In this document: piece by piece, positions 303 to 54,752 of the stretch | Position numbering within the stretch: position 1 is the stretch's first letter | Layout of the letters: each line of letters starts with the position of its first letter | DNA from: Salegentibacter tibetensis | Lineage (GTDB): Bacteria > Bacteroidota > Bacteroidia > Flavobacteriales > Flavobacteriaceae | Direction of reading: 5' to 3' | NCBI RefSeq assembly: GCF_020164485.1 | Contig: NZ_JAIQZA010000007.1 | Location: 1-64,000 of the forward strand | Length of the DNA stretch: 64,000 nucleotides | Program-made: the position numbers and the translations under genes | Notes under the pieces: generated by a model | Databases searched by the model: none | Seen by the model: the letters and a program-made list of their open reading frames with translations, nothing else | Told to the model about the DNA's origin: nothing

Positions 303-712
303 CGTCATTCTGAGGTCTGAGATAAAAAGTTTTATCTAGCGGAGGGAAATGACGTTTCGAGCATGGCGAGTTTTAAACTCCGTGTGTGAGTGCAGCAAAT
401 CAGCAGCGTTAAAAATTTTTGAAAGCTTGTCCTGAGTGGAGTCGAAGGGCCCTGGAAAAAATTTAGCTGCTGATTTGCGATTTTTTCTGCCTCCGACGAC
501 CAAAAGGGAGAGGAAGGCAATTGCCAAAAAAACACCTCCACATAGGGCGCACTTTTTTGTTTCGTTTTAATTGTATCCGACGAACGGAGTGAGAGGAATA
601 CACACAAAAAATGAAAAAGGAAACTTCCAAACCAGGTAAATTTCTTTTTGAATTATAAAAACATAAAAAACAAACCTAAATATTTGGGTTTTAAAAATAC
701 GTCAATGGTAAC
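303..712 (-). repeat. Type A hairpin element, copy 1 (inverted)
   Basis: About 400 bp, homologous to the copies at 10551-10930, 12621-12942 and 17648-18002 but in the opposite orientation. In A orientation it starts at TACCATTGAC-like sequence (right end, near 710) and ends at a hairpin containing CTAGATAAAACTTTTTATCT (left end, near 303-353). Inside are several hairpins, including long arms built on GCAAATCAGCAGC / GCTGCTGATTTGC. It encodes no convincing protein. Confidence 0.8.
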
Positions 713-1062
713 CTGCCCGTCCGTTCAGGCGGGCTTGTTTCAGAATCTAAGATATTGGAAATTAGAGCATGTTAGAATCCCGAAGTAAATTCGGTATAAA
801 AGCTCCTCACCCTTTTTTCAATGGGAGCCCGCCTGAATGATGAAGTCGGGCAGGGTGGATTTTCGTTTGCAAAACGAAAAGACGGAGGGGTTCTTTTTTA
901 GTTAATTCGTTAATAGTTAATGGTTAATCGTTAATTAGTGATTTGACAAAAAGTATTATCACCCCGGGACAACTAAACATTTTGTAGCTTAAACTAAAAA
1001 CTGACAACCCATAACTGAGAACCGGGAACGGAGAACAAAAGATTACCCCGCTCCTGCCTCGC

Positions 1063-10345: not shown

Positions 10346-10550
10346 AACTTTTTTAAAAGTATTTATCTGAAATTAATGTTAACGAAAAGAGGCTGTTTGA
10401 AAGATTTAATTTTCATCAGGCTGAACCTGCCCATCCGTTCAGGCGGGCTTGTTTCAGACTTTATCCCGAATTAACTTCGGGATTCTAACATGTCTTAATT
10501 CCAACATCTTAGACCCCCGATAAAAAGTCGGGGCAAGCTCTGAAATAAAT

Positions 10551-11330
10551 TACCATTGACGTTTTTATAAAACCCTGATATTTAGGTTTGTTTTTTATAT
10601 TTTTATAATTCAAAAAGAAACTTACCTAGTTTGGAAGTTTACTTTTTCATTTTTTGCATGTATTCCTCTCACTAAGTTCGTCGGATACAAGTAAAACGAA
10701 CCAAAACCCGCCTGAACGGACGGGCAGGAAGGGCGTCCTATGTGGAGGTGTTTTTTTGGCAACTGCCTTCCTCTCCCTTTTGGTCGTCGGAGGCAGAAAA
10801 AATCGTAAATCAGCAGCTAAATTTTTTCCAGGGTCCATCGACTCCGCTCAGTACAAGCTTTCAAAATTATTAAAGCTGCTGATTTTCTACACTCACACAC
10901 GGAGTTTAAAACTCGCTAAGCTCGACCAAAGGAAAAATGCAATCATTGACAGAGATAGATTTTATTATTTATTATAGAGTTAAAGAGTAGGTATATAATA
11001 ATTAGTAAAAAATTTAAGTGGCCTATCGAAAATTGATCGTGAAATTTGAAGGGAGATGTCGTTTAAATTTTCTGCTGTTTGAGCGACACGTCTTTTTCTC
11101 GTTGCTCATATTTTCCCGCGAGTTCAGAAAATTTAGACATCGAACGAAAAATTTAGATCAATTTTCGTAAGCCTAGATTTTTTGGTTCTTTTTCATCAAT
11201 GGAAAAAGAACAGAACACCAATTTATTTCAGCCTCATTAATAAATTCAATAATATCATATTTATCTGTCATTTTCCTACGCTAGATAACTTCTTTATCAC
11301 GGGTCTCAGGGTGACGAGTTAAAGATCTTT
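10551..11330 (+). repeat. Composite of type A and type B hairpin elements
   Basis: Begins with the A start TACCATTGAC (10551) and continues as A to about 10925. Before the usual A terminus it enters a B element (ATTGACAGAGATAG near 10946) and ends with the shared terminus TGTCATTTTCCTACGCTAG...GGGTCTCAGGGTGACG (to about 11322). A 22 bp GC-rich palindromic repeat (near 10709-10730) is nested inside the A part and absent from A copies 1, 3 and 4, indicating later insertion. Confidence 0.75.
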
Positions 11331-12337: not shown

Positions 12338-12980
12338 AGCTGTTTGTATTTAAAATGGTTACCTAAATTTACCACTTAAAACCCATGAATTTTCAGCTAA
12401 TCGTTATAGCGTAGAAATACTTGTTAATATAATTTGGCGTAGGATTTTGTATTTTATTTTGGAGGAATTTGTAAAATTTTTGTAAGGATGAGGCTGTCTG
12501 GAAAGTTTTTCAATCATTATTCTGTCCCGAAAGTTTTCGGGATTGTGTCAGAACCTAAGATATTGGCAATCAAACAAGTTAGAATCCCGAAGTAAATTCG
12601 GGATAAAGTCTGAAACAAGTTACCATTGACGTATTTTTAAAACCCTGATATTTAGGTTTGTTTTTTTATAATTCAAAAAGCAACTTACCTGGTTTGGAAG
12701 TTTCCTTTTTCATTTTTTGCTCGCCCAAAAAACGAAACAAAAAAGTGCGCCCTATGTGGAGGTGTTTTTTTGGCAACAAGGTCAAAAAATCGCAAATCAG
12801 CAGCTAAATTTTTTCCAGGGCTTCAAAAATTATTAACGCTGCTGATTTGCTACACTCACACACGGAGTTTAAAACTCGCTATGCTCGAAACGTCATTTTC
12901 CTACGCTAGATAAAATTCTTTATCACGGGTCTCAGCTTGACGAAATCCAGACAGCTTCTTTTGAAGATATTCAAGATTTT
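12338..12980. repeat. Gene-free region with type A element, copy 3
   Basis: No gene. After about 130 bp of AT-rich leader for the lipoprotein gene, there are palindromes with CCCGAAAG/CTTTCGGG-like and TCCCGAA/TTCGGGA arms (12530-12605), then a type A element from TACCATTGAC (12621) to CTCAGCTTGACG (12942). In this copy the GCAAATCAGCAGC / GCTGCTGATTTGC arms are perfect over 13 bp. It lacks the segment between TTGGCAAC and AAAAAATCGC that copies 1 and 2 carry. Confidence 0.75.
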
Positions 12981-17582: not shown

Positions 17583-18587
17583 AAACCTTTTTTAAGATTA
17601 AAATTTATAATCTACTATTAACCATAAACACCAAACTACAAACGAACTACCATTGACGTATTTTTAAAACCCTAATATTTAGGTTTGTTTTTTATGTTTT
17701 TATAATTCAAAAAGAAACTTACCTGGTTTGGAAGTTTCCTTTTTCATTTTTTGAGTGTATTCCTCTCACTCCGTTCGTCGGATACAATTAAAACGAAACA
17801 AAAAAAGGCGTCCTATGTGGAGGTGTTTTTTTGGCAACAAGGCCAAAAAATCGCAAATCAGCGGCTAAATTTTTTCCAGGGCTTCAAAAATTTTTAACGC
17901 TGCTGATTTTCTACACTCACACACGGAGTTTAAAACTGGTTTTGCTCGAAAACGTCATTTTCCTCCGCTAGGTAATTTTTTTATCACGGGTCTCAGCTTG
18001 ACAAAAAAACACGTTGAACCTTGAACCTAAAACCCTAACAATAAACTAAAACCAAGAACAACAAACAATAAACCATAAACATACTCTAACCGAAACTCAT
18101 AACTGAGAACTGAGACAAACGGCTTCGACCATCTCTTTATCCGTCCTCCCGGCCGGAAAAAGAGGCTCAGCCTGACAAAAAAACACGTTGAACCTTGAAC
18201 GTAAAACCTTAACAAACTAAAACAACAAACCCTAAACAACAAACAGAACTAAAACCGAGAACCCATAACTGAAAACTGACAACAGCCGACCCGAACTAAC
18301 AAATTAACGAATCACGAATTAAGGAACACCAAACTACAAACCCTAAACAACAAACATCCTTTAACAGAAAACCGAGAACTGAGAACTCAGAACTGAAAAA
18401 CGGCTTCGACCATCTCTTTATCCGTCCTCCCAGCCGGAAAAAGAGGCTCAGCCTGACAAAAAAAACACGTTGAAGCTTGAACGTAAAACCCTAACAATAA
18501 ACTACAAACCCCAAACAATAAACGAATTAAAACCGAAAACTCATAACTCATAACTGAGAACCGAGAACCGAGAACCGAGAACCGAAA
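17583..18587. repeat. Gene-free region: type A element copy 4 and AAC-rich direct repeats
   Basis: No gene. A type A element (17648-18002) is followed by about 580 bp of AAC-rich degenerate sequence. Within this, a block of roughly 90 bp (18118-18208: CGGCTTCGACCATCTCTTTA through GAGGCTCAGCCTGAC and GAACGTAAAACC) is repeated almost exactly at 18399-18490, and part of it also follows the A element at 18000-18030. The tract ends in a pure heptamer run, (GAGAACC)4, at 18555-18582. An open frame on the minus strand (18027-18242) only reflects this bias. Confidence 0.75.
17648..18002 (+). repeat. Type A hairpin element, copy 4
   Basis: Starts TACCATTGAC and ends ATCACGGGTCTCAGCTTGAC, with the same internal hairpin series as the copies at 303-712 and 12621-12942. 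The IR arms here read GCAAATCAGC and GCTGATTTTC, so the pairing is slightly decayed. Confidence 0.8.
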
Positions 18588-20714: not shown

Positions 20715-21904
20715 TTAAATAATTTTCCGCAAGTTATGAATTAATATAAAACCTGATCAATTGGTTATTTCCTTTTCGTCCGTCATTGCGAGCGACAAAG
20801 GTGCACGACAATCTTCTAATTTTATCACTCATAAACTATCAAATTCCCAATTAACCAATGAACTAAAAACGAGTTAACGAAACAACCGTCAGTTCGAGTG
20901 GCGATATTTGAGCCTAAAGCGAAAATAGCGCTGTATCGAGAACCCATTGATTTTGTGACTCAATAGCACCTCTCGATACTCCCGATAATTATCGGGATCC
21001 TTCGCAGTGACGACTAAAAGATTACGAATTTACAGATTACTTTACTTCCATCATTGCTAGAGCGCAGAAAAAGTTTATCTAGCGGAGGGAAATGACAGAT
21101 AAACATGATATTCCTTAATTCATGAGGCTCGAATAGATTGGTGTTCTGTTCTTTTTCCATTGATGAAAAAGAACCAAAAAATCTAGGCTTACTAAAATGG
21201 ATCTAAATTTTTCGTTCCATGTCTAAATTTTCTGAACTCGCGGGAAAAGTAGGAGTAAAAAGAAAAAGACGTTTCGCTCAAACAGCATAAAATTTAAACG
21301 ACATCTCACTTCAAATTTCACGATCAATTTTCGATAGGCCGCTTATATTTTCTATTAAGTATTTTACACCTACTCCTATAACTCTCTAATAAATAATAAA
21401 ATCTATCTCTGTCAATGGTAGCGACGAAGGAACGTGGCAATCTGTTTCTTAAAACCTGTAATACTAATCTTACATTGTAATTAAATATCAACCGGGTATC
21501 GAATCATAGAACAACAGATTGCTTCAGTACTCCCGATAATTATCGGGATCCTTCGCAATGACGATTACAATAAGATAAATATAAAATACATTACGCTTTA
21601 CTTTCCTTCCGTCACTGCGAGCGACGAAAGGAGCGCGGCAATCTCCTCTTTACAACCCTGAACTAAACTTCATTATTCCTGATTTATGCAATAAAAATAA
21701 AACCAGGGGCAGTAGTAGTATTCTAATCAGCTCTCTCGTCATTGAGCAACAAATAAAGCGAAGCAATCTCCTAAACCAGCCCAACACTCTTCAAATTAAC
21801 AAATCACGAATTACCGAATCACGAACTAACGGTTCTTCGTTACAGCATCATTTCGTCACTCCTTCACCTATTAACATTAAACCTTAAACGGGAAACTTTA
21901 AACT
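20715..21904. repeat. 1.2 kb gene-free region packed with dispersed repeats
   Basis: No gene. It contains palindromic repeats of the GTCATTGCGAGCGA...GGCAATCT kind (20781-20815, 21421-21440, 21609-21645), a longer repeat with TGTATCGAGAAC / CTCTCGATAC arms ending in CCCGATAATTATCGGGATCC (20887-21012, and the ending again at 21528-21565), a type B element in minus orientation (21048-21420), and degenerate ACGAATTAC- and TCACTCCTTCACC-like tracts towards 21780-21900. Confidence 0.75.
21048..21420 (-). repeat. Type B hairpin element, copy 3 (inverted)
   Basis: Minus-orientation copy. The B start TACCATTGACAGAGATAG is at the right end (to 21420) and the shared terminus with TCTAGCGGAGGGAAATGACA at the left. 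The long internal hairpin and the GTTCTTTTTC / GAAAAAGAAC hairpin (near 21148-21175) are both present. Confidence 0.8.
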
Positions 21905-37754: not shown

Positions 37755-39188
37755 TTAATCTTTTCTTAATATTTTAATTAACTCTACAAAGCTCGCCAAT
37801 TTAAAGAAATAACTTAACCCAAGATAAAATAGAAGCCCTAAGGTTCCATTAACTACCAGCCTAAATAAATCGGGTAAGTGTTTAAGCAAATTATCTAAAT
37901 ATAAAAGTCCTGCGCCTGTAAGAATTGTTAATAAAAAAATAGGAAGTAGATCTTTTAATTGAGCTAAAGGAGAATATTTTATAAACTTATCGGCATAGCT
38001 GGCATTTAGAAAAAAGGCGAATAAGGTGGTAACAACTTTTGCTATTATTAGGCCATAAATCCCAAATTGTAGACCTATAAATAATAATAAGATTAAAACC
38101 CCTTTAGTGACAAGGGTTACTTTTAAAAACAAATCACTTCGTCCCTTTACATTTAAAACATTGGTATTATACATATTAATAGGGTATAAAATCCCTCCTA
38201 CACATAGTATCTGAAAATAAGGAACTGCTGGCAACCATTTTGCGGTAAACAAGAAGCGAAAAAGAGGTTCTGCTAAAACTGCCGAAAAAACCATTAATGG
38301 AGCAATAACAAAAACTACCAAAGACATTAAGCGTTGGTATACGTCTCTCAGTTTAAGATTATTATGTTTAATTTCAGCAAATAAAGGATAAGTCACCCTA
38401 TTAAGTGCCATGCTTAAATTTGAAACCGGCAAATTTTTCATGGTTTCGGCCCGTGTATAAAATCCTACCTGGGATGCTGAAAAAACCTTCCCCATTATAA
38501 TCATAATACTATTATCGGAAATTTTACCCAGTAGAGCAGAAAGGGTAATCTTATACCCAAATAAGAAATGAAATTTAAATTTTTTTATATCAAATACAAA
38601 TTTTGGAGTCCATTTGGAATAAATCCAAAATTGCACACTTCTAATTGAAGATGATACAAGTTCGTACCATACAAGACTCCAGACACCGTACCCGAAATTG
38701 GCTAATAAAATTCCACAAGTACCGCCTACGACTGTAGAAGGCAAAGCAATTAAGGCTTGGGACTTAAAATCCATCTGCTTCGTCATTCTGGCCTGTTGCA
38801 CCACTGTAAATGCGGCAATGATAAAACTTAAACAGTATAATCGAACAATATCAGTCAAAATTGGCCTTTCATAGAAATCAGCTATAAAAGGAGCGGATAA
38901 AAAGACCAGTACATAAATCAATAAACTTGCTCCAAGATTATAAAAAAAGACCGTAGCATAATCTATTTCATCGAGATCATCAGTTCTAATAAGCGACTGA
39001 GTGAGTCCAGAATTCATCAATGCATTACCTACTCCAATAAAAATAGAAATCATTCCAATTAAACCAAATTCTTCAGGAAGAAGAATTCTTGCTAGCACGA
39101 CAGAAACAGCAAACGCTATGATCTGGTTTCCAAATTGTTGAAAAAAAGACCAGGATAAGCCAGTTAAAGCTTTCTTCTTTAATGTCAT
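37755..39188 (-). CDS. Wzx-type lipid-linked oligosaccharide flippase 1
   Basis: A 477-residue MOP-superfamily flippase (WzxC-like) with about 12-14 membrane helices. The start LKKKALTGLSWSFFQQFGNQ, RILLPEEFGLIGMISIFIGV, NSGLTQSLIRTDDLDEIDY and FYTRAETMKNLPVSNLSMALNRV are typical. It is closely similar throughout to the second flippase (53316-54752), sharing for example ARILLPEEFGLIGMI, AEPLFRFLFTAKWLPAVPYF (AEPTFRFLFTEKWLPAVPYF in the other) and INMYNTNVLNVKGRSDLFLK. The two are recent paralogues or came from two merged loci. It should move the lipid-linked repeat unit across the inner membrane. Confidence 0.9.
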   Translation of the reverse strand: MTLKKKALTGLSWSFFQQFGNQIIAFAVSVVLARILLPEEFGLIGMISIFIGVGNALMNSGLTQSLIRTDDLDEIDYATVFFYNLGASLLIYVLVFLSAPFIADFYERPILTDIVRLYCLSFIIAAFTVVQQARMTKQMDFKSQALIALPSTVVGGTCGILLANFGYGVWSLVWYELVSSSIRSVQFWIYSKWTPKFVFDIKKFKFHFLFGYKITLSALLGKISDNSIMIIMGKVFSASQVGFYTRAETMKNLPVSNLSMALNRVTYPLFAEIKHNNLKLRDVYQRLMSLVVFVIAPLMVFSAVLAEPLFRFLFTAKWLPAVPYFQILCVGGILYPINMYNTNVLNVKGRSDLFLKVTLVTKGVLILLLFIGLQFGIYGLIIAKVVTTLFAFFLNASYADKFIKYSPLAQLKDLLPIFLLTILTGAGLLYLDNLLKHLPDLFRLVVNGTLGLLFYLGLSYFFKLASFVELIKILRKD

Positions 39189-40888: not shown

Positions 40889-41369
40889 GTTTATATTCTA
40901 TTTTTTGATCAAGTAATGGTTTATTAAAACAGTGAATCTGCTTGTTATATGTAACGCAGTGACCTTGTGATGGAGTAACGGAGCCAATTTTTACTTGGTT
41001 ACTTCATCACAGCATCACTTCGTTACTTCATTACTCTTTCAAACTTTGTATTAATTTCAGAATCATCCTTATGATATATATTATTTCATAGAAATTAGCA
41101 ATAAATCATATTTTATTTTCTAAACGCCACCCTGAACCTGTTTCAGGGTCTAAGTCGAACATTAACACCTGTCATGTTTGATGCTGAAACAAGTTCAGCA
41201 TGACGATTTAATGATAATTTTGAATTTAATCAAAAAATCATCAGTTTACTAATCACCAATCCTATTCCCTAATTAACCATTCTCAAATTACTAATTAACT
41301 AATCTCCAATCCCCAATTAACCAATTCACCAATCCCGAATTAACGAATCCCGAATCCCGAATTAACGGA
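40889..41369. repeat. Gene-free region of short degenerate repeats
   Basis: No gene. Three repeat classes follow one another: a GTGACCTTGTGATGGAGTAAC / GTTACTTCATCACAGCATCAC inverted pair (40955-41035); a pair of hairpins with CACCCTGAACCTGTTTCAGG and GCTGAAACAAGTTCAGC (41128-41207); and an AATTAACCAATCCCGAATTA-like tract of loose 7-8 bp period (41250-41365). Confidence 0.6.
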
Positions 41370-44589: not shown

Positions 44590-45610
44590 CCTGACCTGTT
44601 TATCCCGTGAAATTTGTTAAAATATTTCATTAGAGGAAATACGATTTGCGACGATTTCTCACTTTTTTATGAAAAGTTTTCTTTGAATATTTTCTTTCCT
44701 TCTGAGTTTTTTATTTAAAGAATTAACCAATCACCAGTTAACTAATTCCCAAATTTTTAACAGCCGCAAAGATAGAATTTCTTTATTGGGCTATTGCTAA
44801 AGAAACCTTAAAGCTTTAAAAACGTTAAGAATCATTTTAATTGTGGTATGGAGAGTTTTTATATTTGACCCTGCTATTCTAACTCAGGTCAAAAAAATTC
44901 TGTTTTCGCCAAGCTGATTGTTTCAGCTTCTAAACTGTTTGGATTATCAACAACTTGGATCTCCGGGTAAATTTCGGAGCAGGCTATGAAATAAACCAGC
45001 CTGAACGGACACGGGCAGGTTCAGGATGACGAGCTGAAAAAGCAAAACTTGAAATGCCATTTAATAAAACCTACTTTCTATAAATAGCTCCTCCTCCAAT
45101 TTGAGAGTGGGTGTTAGTTTGCAAAACGAAAAGACGGAGGGGTTTGTTATTAGTTAAATCGTTAATCGTGATTAGTTAATTAGATAATGGTAATTAACTA
45201 ATAATATAAGATTGCCACGTCCGGCTTAGGCCATCCTACTATTGACGTTTTTTTAGAACGTAATATTCCTACGCTAGATTTTTTTTTCTATGGTCTCGCT
45301 ATGACGTTACGTCACTTCGATGGCACGACGTTAGTCGGGGTGTATCGAGAAGTGCAATGCAGTTCGAACTTCTAAGGTTCTCGATACAGCGTTATTTTCG
45401 CTCAGGCTCAAATACCGCCACTCGAACTGACGTAAAAGGAAAAACTGACAACAGAGAACGGAGAACTGAGAACTGATAAGAAAAGATTGCCGCGTCCGGC
45501 TTGGGCCGTCCTCGCAATGACGACCCTAAAGGCAACCACCAAACATCAAACTTTGAAACCACAAACAACAAACCCTAAACGAAAAACTGAAAACCGACAA
45601 CCGAGAAATC
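44590..45610. repeat. Gene-free region with several repeat types
   Basis: No gene. It holds palindromes related to the CCTGAACGG/CCGTTCAGG repeat (44990-45030), the TTTGCAAAACGAAAAGACGG repeat (45090-45150), GATTGCCACGTCCGG-type repeats (45205-45232, 45481-45524), an end-only mini version of the A/B element (45238-45306), a GTATCGAGAAG / TTCTCGATAC repeat (45313-45433), and an AAC-rich tract (45535-45605). Confidence 0.7.
45238..45306 (+). repeat. End-only miniature of the A/B hairpin element
   Basis: Begins TACTATTGACG and ends CCTACGCTAGATT...GGTCTCGCTATGACG, the two termini shared by types A and B. Only about 15 bp of unrelated sequence lie between the ends. Confidence 0.65.
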
Positions 45611-49920: not shown

Positions 49921-51271
49921 ATGTAGATATTTATTGTTTTTTAACGGTTATATGCAATTCGCATATCTTCATTGGAGTTTGCATCGGATTTCCGTTATGC
50001 TCATTTCATACAATTTACTTTTTGGCAATATAAAAGATACTCCGCAAATATAATGTTTCCTATTAGTCTATCGAATTAATAGGGTTTTAAATATTTAATT
50101 TTTTTATGTTCTTATTTATGGAAGATTTTTTTGTCAAATATGCTGGAATTGGAGAACTCAGGATGTGAAAATTAGGAATATCCGAAAATAGTTAATCGGT
50201 GATTGGTTAATTGGTTAAAAGTATTTTCATCCCAGAGTAACAAGTCATTTTTTAGCTTCGAAAAAATATCAGAAAGATAAAATTGAAACGCCAAACAGAT
50301 GGTAATTAACTAAAAACAAAAGATTGCCACGCCCGGCAAAAGCCGTCCTCGCAATGACGGGGAAAAGAATATTCATGTATTCGTGGCCTTTCAGTTTAAA
50401 GAAATAAAAACACCTTGAAACCCAAAATAACAAACCCAAAACGAAAAAAACTGACAACCGAGAACAGATAACTGATAAAAAAGATTGCCACGTTCGGTTA
50501 AAAAACCGGCCTGGCAATGACGCACAACCGGAAAAAAAGCCATTTTCGCAATGAACTGCGTTGGTAATCAATTCCCTTATACCGCTGGTGCTTAGTCGGT
50601 AGACCTTAGTCTTTAGACAGTAGTTTTTTTATAAATCTAACAGCTACAGAATACCGTCTGATTTTATTCGTGGATTCGTGGCTTTCAATTGCCAGCTCCA
50701 ATTTAAAGTAAAATTAAAAGCTCCTCACCTTTTTTCAAGGGGAGGTGGATTTTCGTTTGCTAAAACGAAAAGACGAAGGGTTTCTTTTTAGTTAATGCGT
50801 TAATGGTGAATCGTTAATTGGTTATTAGTTATTGGTCAATTAGAAAAAACTAACACTAATCCATTAAAAATGCGTTCAATAAAACATTTTTGCTGCTTCT
50901 ATTAAGCATAAAAACAGCAAGCTAAGAACCAGGAATTCTTACCAAAAGATTGCCACGTCCGGTTAAAAAACCGGCCTCGCAATGACGAGGAAAAAATATT
51001 TGTGGATTCGTGGTTTTACAGTCTGCACTCTCAATTTAAAGTAAAATTAAAAGCTCCTCACCTTTTTTCAAGGGGAGGTGGATTTTCGTTTGCTAAAACG
51101 AAAAGACGGAGGGGTTCTTTTTAGTTAATGCGTTAATGGTGGATCGTTAATTGGTTAACTGTGTGAACCCTAAACAACGAATCCTAAACGAAAAACAAGG
51201 AACCGAAAACCTACAACTGAATACCGGTTTGTAATAGCAAAAACTTAAAACTTGTTTACCTGAACAACATA
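49921..51271. repeat. 1.35 kb gene-free repeat region upstream of cysQ
   Basis: No gene. Near the cysQ end there is a possible -7 box on the minus strand (50045-50052, TATATTTG). Beyond it lie three copies of the GATTGCCACG...CGGTT...CCGGCCTCGCAATGACG repeat (50320-50360, 50483-50522, 50946-50985), AAC-rich tracts (50420-50465, 51165-51230), and a direct duplication of about 150 bp (50665-50824 and 51001-51156) that includes the GCTCCTCACC / GGGGAGGTGG and TTTTCGTTT / AAACGAAAA hairpins. Confidence 0.7.
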
Positions 51272-53319: not shown

Positions 53320-54752
53320 CTTTTTAAAATTAGTTTATAAAGTTCAGGAAGACTATTAAAACGAAAAACAAAGGCAAAACCTATATATGTGAGAATCCCG
53401 ACTATTCCACCTACAATTATTCTAAGCAGGTCTACCTCATTTAACAAACCGAATTGATCGACGAAAAATACAATTAAGCCTGAAAAACAAGCAATCAGAA
53501 TGATTGGAAAAATATCCCTTATTTGCTGCCAGCCAGAATACCCTATGAATTTTTTCGTATAATGAGCGTTGATAAAAAATGCCAATAAGGATATTATTAC
53601 CTGCCCATATAATAAAGCTAAGATCCCAAAAGGGATTGCAAGCAGAATTATTATCACAATTAATATTTTTTTAATGACCTCAAGTTTTAGAAATAGATCG
53701 CTACGCCCTTTTACATTCAAAATAGTTAAATTATAGGAATGAATTGGAAAAAGGATACCTGTCACACAAAGTATCTGGAAATAAGGCACCGCCGGCAACC
53801 ATTTTTCAGTAAATAAAAACCTAAATGTTGGCTCTGCCAGCACCGCTAAAAAAATAAGAAGCGGTGTAATTACAAAAACCACCATCAGCATCAGCTTTTT
53901 GTAAACCCTCTTTAACCTTAGTTCATCATCTTTGATTGAAACAAGCAATGGAAAACTAACTTTATTAAGTGCATTTGAAATATTATTTACAGGCAACTGT
54001 TTCATAGTTTCTGCCCTTGTATAAAACCCAACCTGCCCCGCTGAAAAATACTTCCCGATAACAATAAGAAAGATATTATTGAATATTCTATTTAAAAGAT
54101 CAGACAGCGTGAGTTTGTAACCATAATTAAAATGCTTTTTAAATTTTACGCTACTGAATATAAAATCTGGTGTCCAACCTGAATATATCCAAACCAGGAT
54201 AGAGTTCACTATAGAAGTTATAATGCTGCTCCAAACCAGGCTCCATACCCCATAACCAGTATAGGCCATTGAAACCCCAACTATTCCCCCAATAATTGCT
54301 GCCGGAATAGCTATTAAGGTCTGGGTTTTAAAATCCATTAGTTTAGTCAGTCTCGCTAACTGAACTGCAGAAAAAGAAGTTATAACCAAGCTTAAAGAAT
54401 AAACCCTGATTATATCGATAAGAACCCCTTCCTCATAAAAATCTGCTATGAATGGTGCCGAAATAAAAACACCGGCATATACTATTAAACTGGAAATAAG
54501 ATGAAAATAAAATACCGTTGAATAATCTTCCTGGTCACATTCATTATCCCGAATAAGGGATTTGGTAAGTCCGCCATCAAGCAGGGCATTTCCCACAGCT
54601 ACTACAACAGCTATCATTCCTATAAGTCCGAATTCCTCAGGAAGCAGGATTCTCGCAAGAACCAGCGAAACAATGAAACCTACTAATTGGTTCCCAAATT
54701 GCTGGGTGAAGGTCCATACCAGACTTATTGTAGCTTTCTTTTTTAAAGACAT
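53316..54752 (-). CDS. Wzx-type lipid-linked oligosaccharide flippase 2
   Basis: A 478-residue MOP-family flippase of the WzxC type, paralogous over its whole length to the one at 37755-39188 (start LKKKATISLVWTFTQQFGNQ, RILLPEEFGLIGMIAVVVAV, FYTRAETMKQLPVNNISNAL, EKWLPAVPYFQILCVTGILF, LNVKGRSDLFLKLEV). About 12-14 membrane helices. It is coupled to the VioA-like gene by a 4 bp overlap. Two flippases with one recognised polymerase candidate and one Wza/Wzc set imply either two repeat units sharing export proteins or a redundant copy from a merged locus. Confidence 0.9.
   Translation of the reverse strand: MSLKKKATISLVWTFTQQFGNQLVGFIVSLVLARILLPEEFGLIGMIAVVVAVGNALLDGGLTKSLIRDNECDQEDYSTVFYFHLISSLIVYAGVFISAPFIADFYEEGVLIDIIRVYSLSLVITSFSAVQLARLTKLMDFKTQTLIAIPAAIIGGIVGVSMAYTGYGVWSLVWSSIITSIVNSILVWIYSGWTPDFIFSSVKFKKHFNYGYKLTLSDLLNRIFNNIFLIVIGKYFSAGQVGFYTRAETMKQLPVNNISNALNKVSFPLLVSIKDDELRLKRVYKKLMLMVVFVITPLLIFLAVLAEPTFRFLFTEKWLPAVPYFQILCVTGILFPIHSYNLTILNVKGRSDLFLKLEVIKKILIVIIILLAIPFGILALLYGQVIISLLAFFINAHYTKKFIGYSGWQQIRDIFPIILIACFSGLIVFFVDQFGLLNEVDLLRIIVGGIVGILTYIGFAFVFRFNSLPELYKLILKR

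What the first reader, a model, noticed from the sequence alone, without database searches (positions are those of the whole stretch)
10551..11330. Two families of hairpin-rich non-coding elements (A and B) share the same ends but have different interiors
A copies lie at 303-712, 10551-10930, 12621-12942 and 17648-18002; B copies at 1063-1438, 10940-11330 and 21048-21420. Both begin with TACCATTGAC and finish with a hairpin GTCATTTTCCTACGCTAGAT ... ATCACGGGTCTCAG ... TGACG. The A interior is a chain of separate hairpins (AAACTTACC/GGAAGTTT, TGTATTCC/GGATACA, and 13 bp arms GCAAATCAGCAGC/GCTGCTGATTTGC). The B interior is one hairpin with arms of about 50 bp plus a GTTCTTTTTC/GAAAAAGAAC hairpin. 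Common termini with exchangeable, structured, non-coding cargo look like a non-autonomous mobile family that moves or recombines through folded single strands, with the ends as the recognised part. The composite at 10551-11330 would be a recombination product.
Basis: partly seen in the sequence, partly recalled or inferred. Interest (0 to 1): 0.75.

Follow-up and report, generated by a model that had tools for sequence, protein, structure and literature searches.

The report
Stowaway DNA using an RNA-guided transposon
A marine bacterium carries dozens of short gene-less DNA elements with very different folded interiors that share the ends of an RNA-guided jumping gene (IS110) and sit in the same kind of target site, so they look like natural hitch-hikers that the jumping gene's enzyme and guide RNA move for them.

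Summary
In a Salegentibacter genome the A, B and composite copies are discrete elements with RE TACCATTGACG.. and a ~41-bp LE ending ..ATCACGGGTC. The same ends bound a multi-copy IS110-family insertion sequence whose interior is missing from this draft assembly; complete copies occur in Salinimicrobium marinum and Gillisia hiemivivida. It encodes a DEDD 'RNA-guided transposase' and, upstream, a conserved non-coding region whose guide-like loop tracks the target across lineages. A/B keep LE and RE but show no guide region. Several interiors share these ends: A, B, A+B (one 755-bp element), 290- and 393-bp types, and a 59-bp cargo-less form at 45237-45295. Best reading: natural non-autonomous IS110 elements mobilised in trans by IS110 recombinase plus bridge RNA/seekRNA into REPs, not by RAYTs or folded single strands. 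Movement is inferred. B's core is separately a covarying ~200-nt structured repeat.

The parts
10551..11305 (-). Composite A+B non-autonomous element: RE at 10551 (from A), LE ending 11305 (from B); one element, strand given in the orientation of the IS110 (LE to RE)
11306..11317 (-). Half of the target REP (TCAGGGTGACGA) on the LE side of the composite; the other half (..CTGAAATAAAT) ends at 10550
314..710 (+). A element (397 bp), LE of the variant type GGTCTGAGATAAA
1063..1426 (-). B element (364 bp)
12621..12931 (-). A element (311 bp)
17648..17992 (-). A element (345 bp); no related empty site found for this copy
21066..21420 (+). B element; RE end at 21420 exact, outermost LE bases degenerate so the lower boundary is approximate
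45237..45295 (-). Cargo-less 59-bp element (RE+LE only) in a REP; an uninterrupted relative of its target lies at about 45486-45521
11020..11213 (+). B core: structured ~200-nt repeat family also found without IS110 ends

Best explanation
A, B and their kin are natural non-autonomous members (mini-ISs) of an IS110-family insertion sequence. Shown by sequence: they share LE and RE with a multi-copy IS110 in the same genome; they lack its transposase and guide-RNA region; they sit at one defined position of REP palindromes, the two flanks sharing only one or two bases with the element ends (A, or AG, in IS orientation); and unrelated non-coding interiors occur between the same ends. Inferred: recombinase and bridge RNA/seekRNA made by autonomous copies act in trans, excise the mini-IS as a circle with an RE-LE junction (CAATGGTA|GACC) and insert it into REPs of the form CATNCTGA^(A/G). 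The composite is inferred to have arisen where two elements lay side by side (tandem states are seen at C104 and C111) and the inner ends were lost, leaving one RE and one LE able to move as a unit.
For: Ends: LE profile matches all 41 A/B copies over its first 33-47 positions at E<=10, 34 of them at E<=0.01; RE identical over at least TACCATTGACG. Target: REP half after the tail in 39 of 41; related empty sites 26 of 31 vs 1 of 200 random, not REP-matched, junctions. Partner: IS110 RE at 4 and LE at 7 contig ends of this genome, full copies in S. marinum and Gillisia, PF01548, PF02371 and NF033542 above cut-off. Guide: loop covaries with target across S. lacus, S. marinum, Gillisia and G377; base before CTGA in IS targets is G in 6 of 7 here (guide G; background 7 of 22, p 0.005) and C in 6 of 6 in S. 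lacus (guide C; background 9 of 19, p 0.011). Several cargos between the same ends. Composite present twice with different flanks. Laboratory precedent: ISEc21 ends of 29 and 16 bp move cargo with enzyme and seekRNA supplied in trans (PMC11187229, section 12 read).
Against: No transposition, circle or transcript was observed. The complete IS copy of this strain is not assembled, so its gene may be broken. A/B LEs (GACCCGTGATAAA..) differ from the resident IS LE (GACCTGCGGTAAA..) at several positions. Two single-contig genomes, G010 and G011, hold A/B copies, but no autonomous partner was found there with the C-terminal peptide or the LE region, apart from a remnant in G011. S. lacus has IS copies but few A/B in the capped listing. 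The base after the insertion point is A in 25, G in 5 and C in 1 of 31 copies, whereas the donor core is AG. A/B targets include T before CTGA, which fits neither known guide. Right-hand guides not identified; NCR fold only z -1.36. Five of 31 copies have no related empty site in the sequence held.
Confidence: 0.85

Rival explanations
1. RAYT/TnpA(REP) mobilisation: A and B are large BIME/REPIN-like elements moved through folded single strands.
For: 9 Y1_Tnp matches in the genome; hairpin-rich interiors; REPs at both flanks.
Against: 0 of 7 inspected RAYT-like loci carry the A/B ends or the scanned REP motifs within 700 bp; the ends belong to an IS110; A's hairpins show no covariation. The REP motif scan used only a few patterns.
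Confidence: 0.05
2. A and B were moved by an extinct or different IS110 relative with LE closer to theirs; the resident IS110 only shares ancestry and no longer mobilises them.
For: A/B LEs differ from the resident LE and include a second type (GGTCTGAGATAAA) that resembles the LE of the G011 remnant; A copies diverge from each other more than the IS copies do; copies in G010 and G011 without a partner found.
Against: The donor-core region (AATGGTA|GACC) is shared; LE/RE homology is otherwise close.
Confidence: 0.4
3. The interiors are the point: A and B are conserved functional RNAs (regulators or terminators) and their IS110 ends are incidental.
For: B core appears as core-only BLAST matches in nine other Salegentibacter genomes of the listing; nine such loci printed with flanks lack IS110 ends and three of them share a flank in different species; 11 of 42 pairs compensatory.
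Against: Does not explain site-specific placement in REPs with exact ends; A lacks covariation; no Rfam match; no expression data.
Confidence: 0.2
4. Copies arise only by segmental duplication or gene conversion between REP-rich regions.
For: REP-rich flanks resemble each other; copies are clustered: seven in this window, while 0 RE 11-mers occur in 400 kb sampled elsewhere in the genome.
Against: Exact ends in different REP classes and related empty sites.
Confidence: 0.03

Closest known systems
IS110 family insertion sequences with bridge RNA / seekRNA (IS621, ISEc21)
   Same: DEDD transposase family, NCR upstream of the gene, guide loop matching the target's left side, REP target as for IS621 (PMC11208160, passages and section 7; PMC11187229, sections 11-12), no TIR, core of one or two bases
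   Different: A/B carry neither transposase nor guide RNA; natural, many copies, several cargos
Laboratory mini-IS constructs of ISEc11/ISEc21
   Same: short ends around foreign cargo; LE 29 bp and RE 16 bp sufficed for ISEc21 (PMC11187229, section 12 read)
   Different: these are natural; LE about 41 bp, RE 11-20 bp; movement not shown
Bacterial MITEs
   Same: short, non-coding, multi-copy, dependent on another element's transposase
   Different: no terminal inverted repeats and no usual target duplication; ends of an IS110. MITE papers seen in passages trace theirs to IS982, IS1182, or IS5-like elements (PMC9769881, PMC11578231, PMC3189936)
CGTC-tagged REPs
   Same: likely class of the targets (CGTCANNCTGA..); that paper reports no transposase gene flanked by CGTC repeats (PMC3733652, passages)
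   Different: REPs are the 20-40 bp target; A/B are insertions into them
Coxiella QMITE2 / IS1111
   Same: IS110-superfamily element inserting into a REP-bearing repeat (PMC5896051, abstract and passages)
   Different: there the repeat is the target, not a derivative of the IS

Membership tests
IS110 family (non-autonomous member) | ends shared with an element that encodes a DEDD IS110 transposase | tested here: met
   LE and RE match; PF01548, PF02371, NF033542 in the partner from S. marinum; the partner in this genome is seen only at contig ends
IS110 family (non-autonomous member) | sequence-specific target, no TIR, target duplication of at most a few bases | tested here: met
IS110 family (non-autonomous member) | partner has an NCR whose RNA matches target and donor | tested here: inconclusive
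   left target guide and left donor stretch found and covarying; right-hand guides not found; RNA not shown to exist
IS110 family (non-autonomous member) | circular intermediate and movement in trans | not testable with these tools
   needs the bench
classical MITE (DDE transposase derived) | terminal inverted repeats and a fixed target-site duplication | tested here: not met
   RE TACCATTGACG and LE end GGGTC are not inverted copies; no duplication beyond 1-2 bases
RAYT-mobilised REP/BIME/REPIN | the same ends flank a RAYT gene | tested here: not met
   0 of 7 inspected loci of 9 matches
Element carrying its own bridge RNA | NCR guide region present inside A/B | tested here: not met
   only LE matched in 41 of 41; two further interior matches have negative scores, E 6.7 and 8.4
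Rfam RNA family | match above gathering score | tested here: not met
   window; for 11 other loci two sub-threshold matches only

The most novel reading that the evidence does not exclude
A natural satellite economy around a bridge-RNA recombinase: one IS110 and its guide RNA serve, in trans, a population of mini-elements whose cargos (A, B, A+B, 290- and 393-bp types, none) are exchanged between the same ends. Some cargos, such as the covarying B core, would be functional RNAs that gain dispersal, or give something back to the host or to the recombinase, rather than passive filler.
Probability: 0.2. Interest if true: 0.85.

Novelty: new variant of a known kind. Interest (0 to 1): 0.63.

Why it matters
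IS110 recombinases with their bridge RNAs/seekRNAs are programmable DNA-insertion systems, and laboratory work moved cargo between short IS ends with enzyme and RNA supplied in trans (PMC11187229, sections 11-12). These elements suggest that nature does the same, many times in one genome and with several cargos, and they display minimal ends (LE about 41 bp, RE 11-20 bp, down to a 59-bp element) and tolerated targets. I found no description of non-autonomous IS110 derivatives in the held open-access library (searches; passages of PMC10969869, PMC11578231, PMC9769881, PMC3718332, PMC3189936, PMC5896051). Subscription papers, preprints and ISfinder were not searched.

Tried and rejected
Rfam: nothing of relevance. 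RAYT partner: rejected. The IS110 gene that is fully assembled in this genome (C1, 457-465 aa) has other ends and interrupts what I take, from recall, for an M16-type peptidase gene. I screened IS110 loci L186-L214 and L077 from the genus by script for matching ends and C-termini and saw none, but for several loci the frame printed was not the transposase, two gave no frame, and PF01548 rows without a locus were not inspected. The 44-aa C-terminal peptide alone matched no NCBIfam or Pfam model. Own guide RNA inside A/B: not found in 41 copies. Structure prediction of the transposase had mean pLDDT 40.7 and was not used. No PDB sequence match at E<=0.01. Clean orthologous empty sites: in G013 and G001 the syntenic gaps lack REP and element together. 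The 31 copies were chosen by a regex that required a CTGA/TCGA/ACGA/GCGA left flank, so that set was not used to count target specificity; the BLAST-defined 41 were. In one search the class label missed two true A copies.

Full report
What was checked. Searching the whole genome of the window (4.2 Mb draft, 187 contigs; window = C155:1-64000) gave 31 A-type and 10 B-type intervals. The exact 11-base head occurs 44 times, the reversed control pattern 3 times.

Exact ends and targets. The edges of all 41 intervals show that homology starts at TACCATTGACG and stops at ..ATCACGGGTC. What follows, and what precedes the head, joins into REP palindromes, for instance CTGAAACAAGT^TCAGNATGACG, CCCTTCGACTGCGC^TCAGGGTGACAAAAACTG (three A copies, with a B copy in a close variant), GGAAAC^TCGAAGTGACG and GTTGC^TCGTAATGAC. 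The REP half TC(A/G)NNNTGA follows the tail in 31 of 31 A and 8 of 10 B intervals; the two exceptions are a B copy abutting another element's head (C104) and the copy at 21048-21420 with a degenerate LE tip. Joining the two 20-base flanks of 31 regex-defined copies finds an uninterrupted related site in the same genome for 26 of 31, spanning at least 9 bases on each side, against 1 of 200 random junctions; the control is not matched for REP content. In the orientation of the partner IS the insertion is CATNCTGA^; the next base is A in 25, G in 5, C in 1 of 31. LE is GACCCGTGATAAA..CTAGCG.AGG..TGACG and RE is CGTCAATGGTA. The flanks share one base (A) or two (AG) with the element ends, and there are no terminal inverted repeats.

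The partner. Four contig ends of this genome carry the same RE followed by the 3' end of a reading frame, and seven carry LE followed by one conserved non-coding stretch: a repeat the assembly could not cross. S. lacus shows the same. Full copies lie in Salinimicrobium marinum (L217, 1551 bp) and Gillisia hiemivivida (L218, 1552 bp). The S. marinum protein (435 aa) matches PF01548, PF02371 and, above its curated cut-off, NCBIfam NF033542 'IS110 family RNA-guided transposase'. A protein of another genome of the family (G377) is 76% identical. In the family-wide search 6 of 397 genomes had a match at E<=1e-60; 4 of those 6 are only 35-38% identical, the one in this genome (C1) among them.

The guide region. 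Between LE and the gene lie about 190 conserved bases. A short loop before GTATGG changes with the insertion site: TTCCTGAG with CATCCTGA or CAACCTGA in S. lacus; TTGCTGAG with CATGCTGA in S. marinum; GTGCCTGAG with CACCCTGA in Gillisia; GTGTTCGAG with CAGTTCGA^G in G377. In this genome the loop is TTGCTGAG, and the base before CTGA in seven IS targets is G in 6 and T in 1; in S. lacus it is C in 6 of 6. In about 400 kb of each genome, taken at spaced places, unfilled GTCANNCTGA sites have G in 7 of 22 (this genome) and C in 9 of 19 (S. lacus): binomial p 0.005 and 0.011. An earlier count in sequence around insertions gave G 23 and C 40 of 79. A second conserved stretch, AATGGTAG, equals the RE|LE junction. 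This is how left target guide and left donor guide lie in bridge RNAs (PMC11208160, section 7 read). I could not place the right-hand guides, and the RNA fold is only weakly better than shuffles (z -1.36).

What A and B keep. A profile of the non-coding region matches all 41 A/B copies within its first 33-47 positions, that is LE; 34 of 41 at E<=0.01, the other seven at 0.012-0.7. Two further matches in interiors have negative scores (E 6.7 and 8.4), so no guide region is seen. Interiors differ: A, B, the A+B composite, a 290-bp type (C122:154323, partly related to A), a 393-bp type (C111:125858), and a 59-bp element with no interior at window 45237-45295. A Gillisia element with similar ends lies beside that genome's IS110. 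The composite of the finding is a single 755-bp element with one RE, one LE and one target; a second copy with the same inner junction and other flanks exists, truncated at its head. Tandem neighbours sharing a junction (C104, C111) look like the state from which composites arise; that is inference.

Mechanism. Most likely an IS110 recombinase and its guide RNA, supplied by autonomous copies, move these elements in trans into REPs. That short ends suffice is known from the laboratory: ISEc21 ends of 29 and 16 bp moved a promoterless reporter with enzyme and seekRNA supplied separately (PMC11187229, sections 11-12 read). Here it is inferred from anatomy. Against a simple picture: A/B LEs differ from the resident LE at several positions; two single-contig genomes (G010, G011) hold A/B copies but no autonomous partner was found in them; S. 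lacus has IS copies but few A/B in a capped listing; some A/B targets fit neither known guide. So an earlier relative may have moved them, and present activity is open.

The interiors. B's core is a ~200-nt repeat seen as core-only matches in nine other Salegentibacter genomes of the listing; nine core-only loci printed with flanks lack IS110 ends and three share a flank. In 21 sequences 11 of 42 consensus pairs changed on both sides, z -9.0 against shuffled columns. It is a structured family of its own that IS110 ends have picked up. A's hairpins fold well as a consensus (z -4.5) but lack covariation.

Known or new. IS targeting of REPs and RNA-guided IS110 transposition are known; natural non-autonomous IS110 elements were not found in the held library. 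I file this as a new variant of a known kind.

Noticed in passing
window 11020-11213; L044-L049, L165-L168: B core is an independent dispersed structured repeat ending in a GTTCTTTTTTCATCAATGGAAAAAAGAAC hairpin, with conserved TTTGAGC and GCGAGTT strands; L044, L165 and L168 share a flank upstream of a conserved gene.
   Followed up: partly
C122:127193-127923 and C104:19582-19929, compared with window 10940-11330: A 22-base palindrome (CCTGCCCG..CGGGCGGG type) is inserted in the B hairpin before TTTGAGC in some copies; similar palindromes occur as indels in A.
   Followed up: no
L113 (C104:38813), L063 (C35:63190): Heads TACCATTGACG stand alone in REP flanks with no element behind them; possible excision or deletion scars.
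   Followed up: no
window 1-64000: The window holds seven elements of this family, while 400 kb sampled elsewhere in the genome held no RE 11-mer: strong clustering.
   Followed up: no
L232 (G011:C1, about 3031500-3031700): Remnant of an IS110 NCR with the second LE type (GGTTTGAGATAAA) and guide GTGGCTGAG, without an intact gene seen.
   Followed up: partly
L117 (C1:145671-147044): A different IS110 (457-465 aa, 38% identical to the partner) interrupts a gene that looks like an M16 peptidase (recalled, not searched).
   Followed up: no
window 854-949, 45104-45195, 50744-50839, 51077-51158: Another dispersed repeat of about 75-95 bp with TTTGCAAAACGAAAAGACGGAGGGG, plus a 160-bp repeat 50665-50824 / 50997-51157.
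   Followed up: no
window 41248-41366: Tandem array of AT-rich 15-45-base units (AATTAACCAATC type).
   Followed up: no
window 38121-39140 and 53685-54704: Two 1-kb stretches about 66% identical, probably paralogous genes.
   Followed up: no
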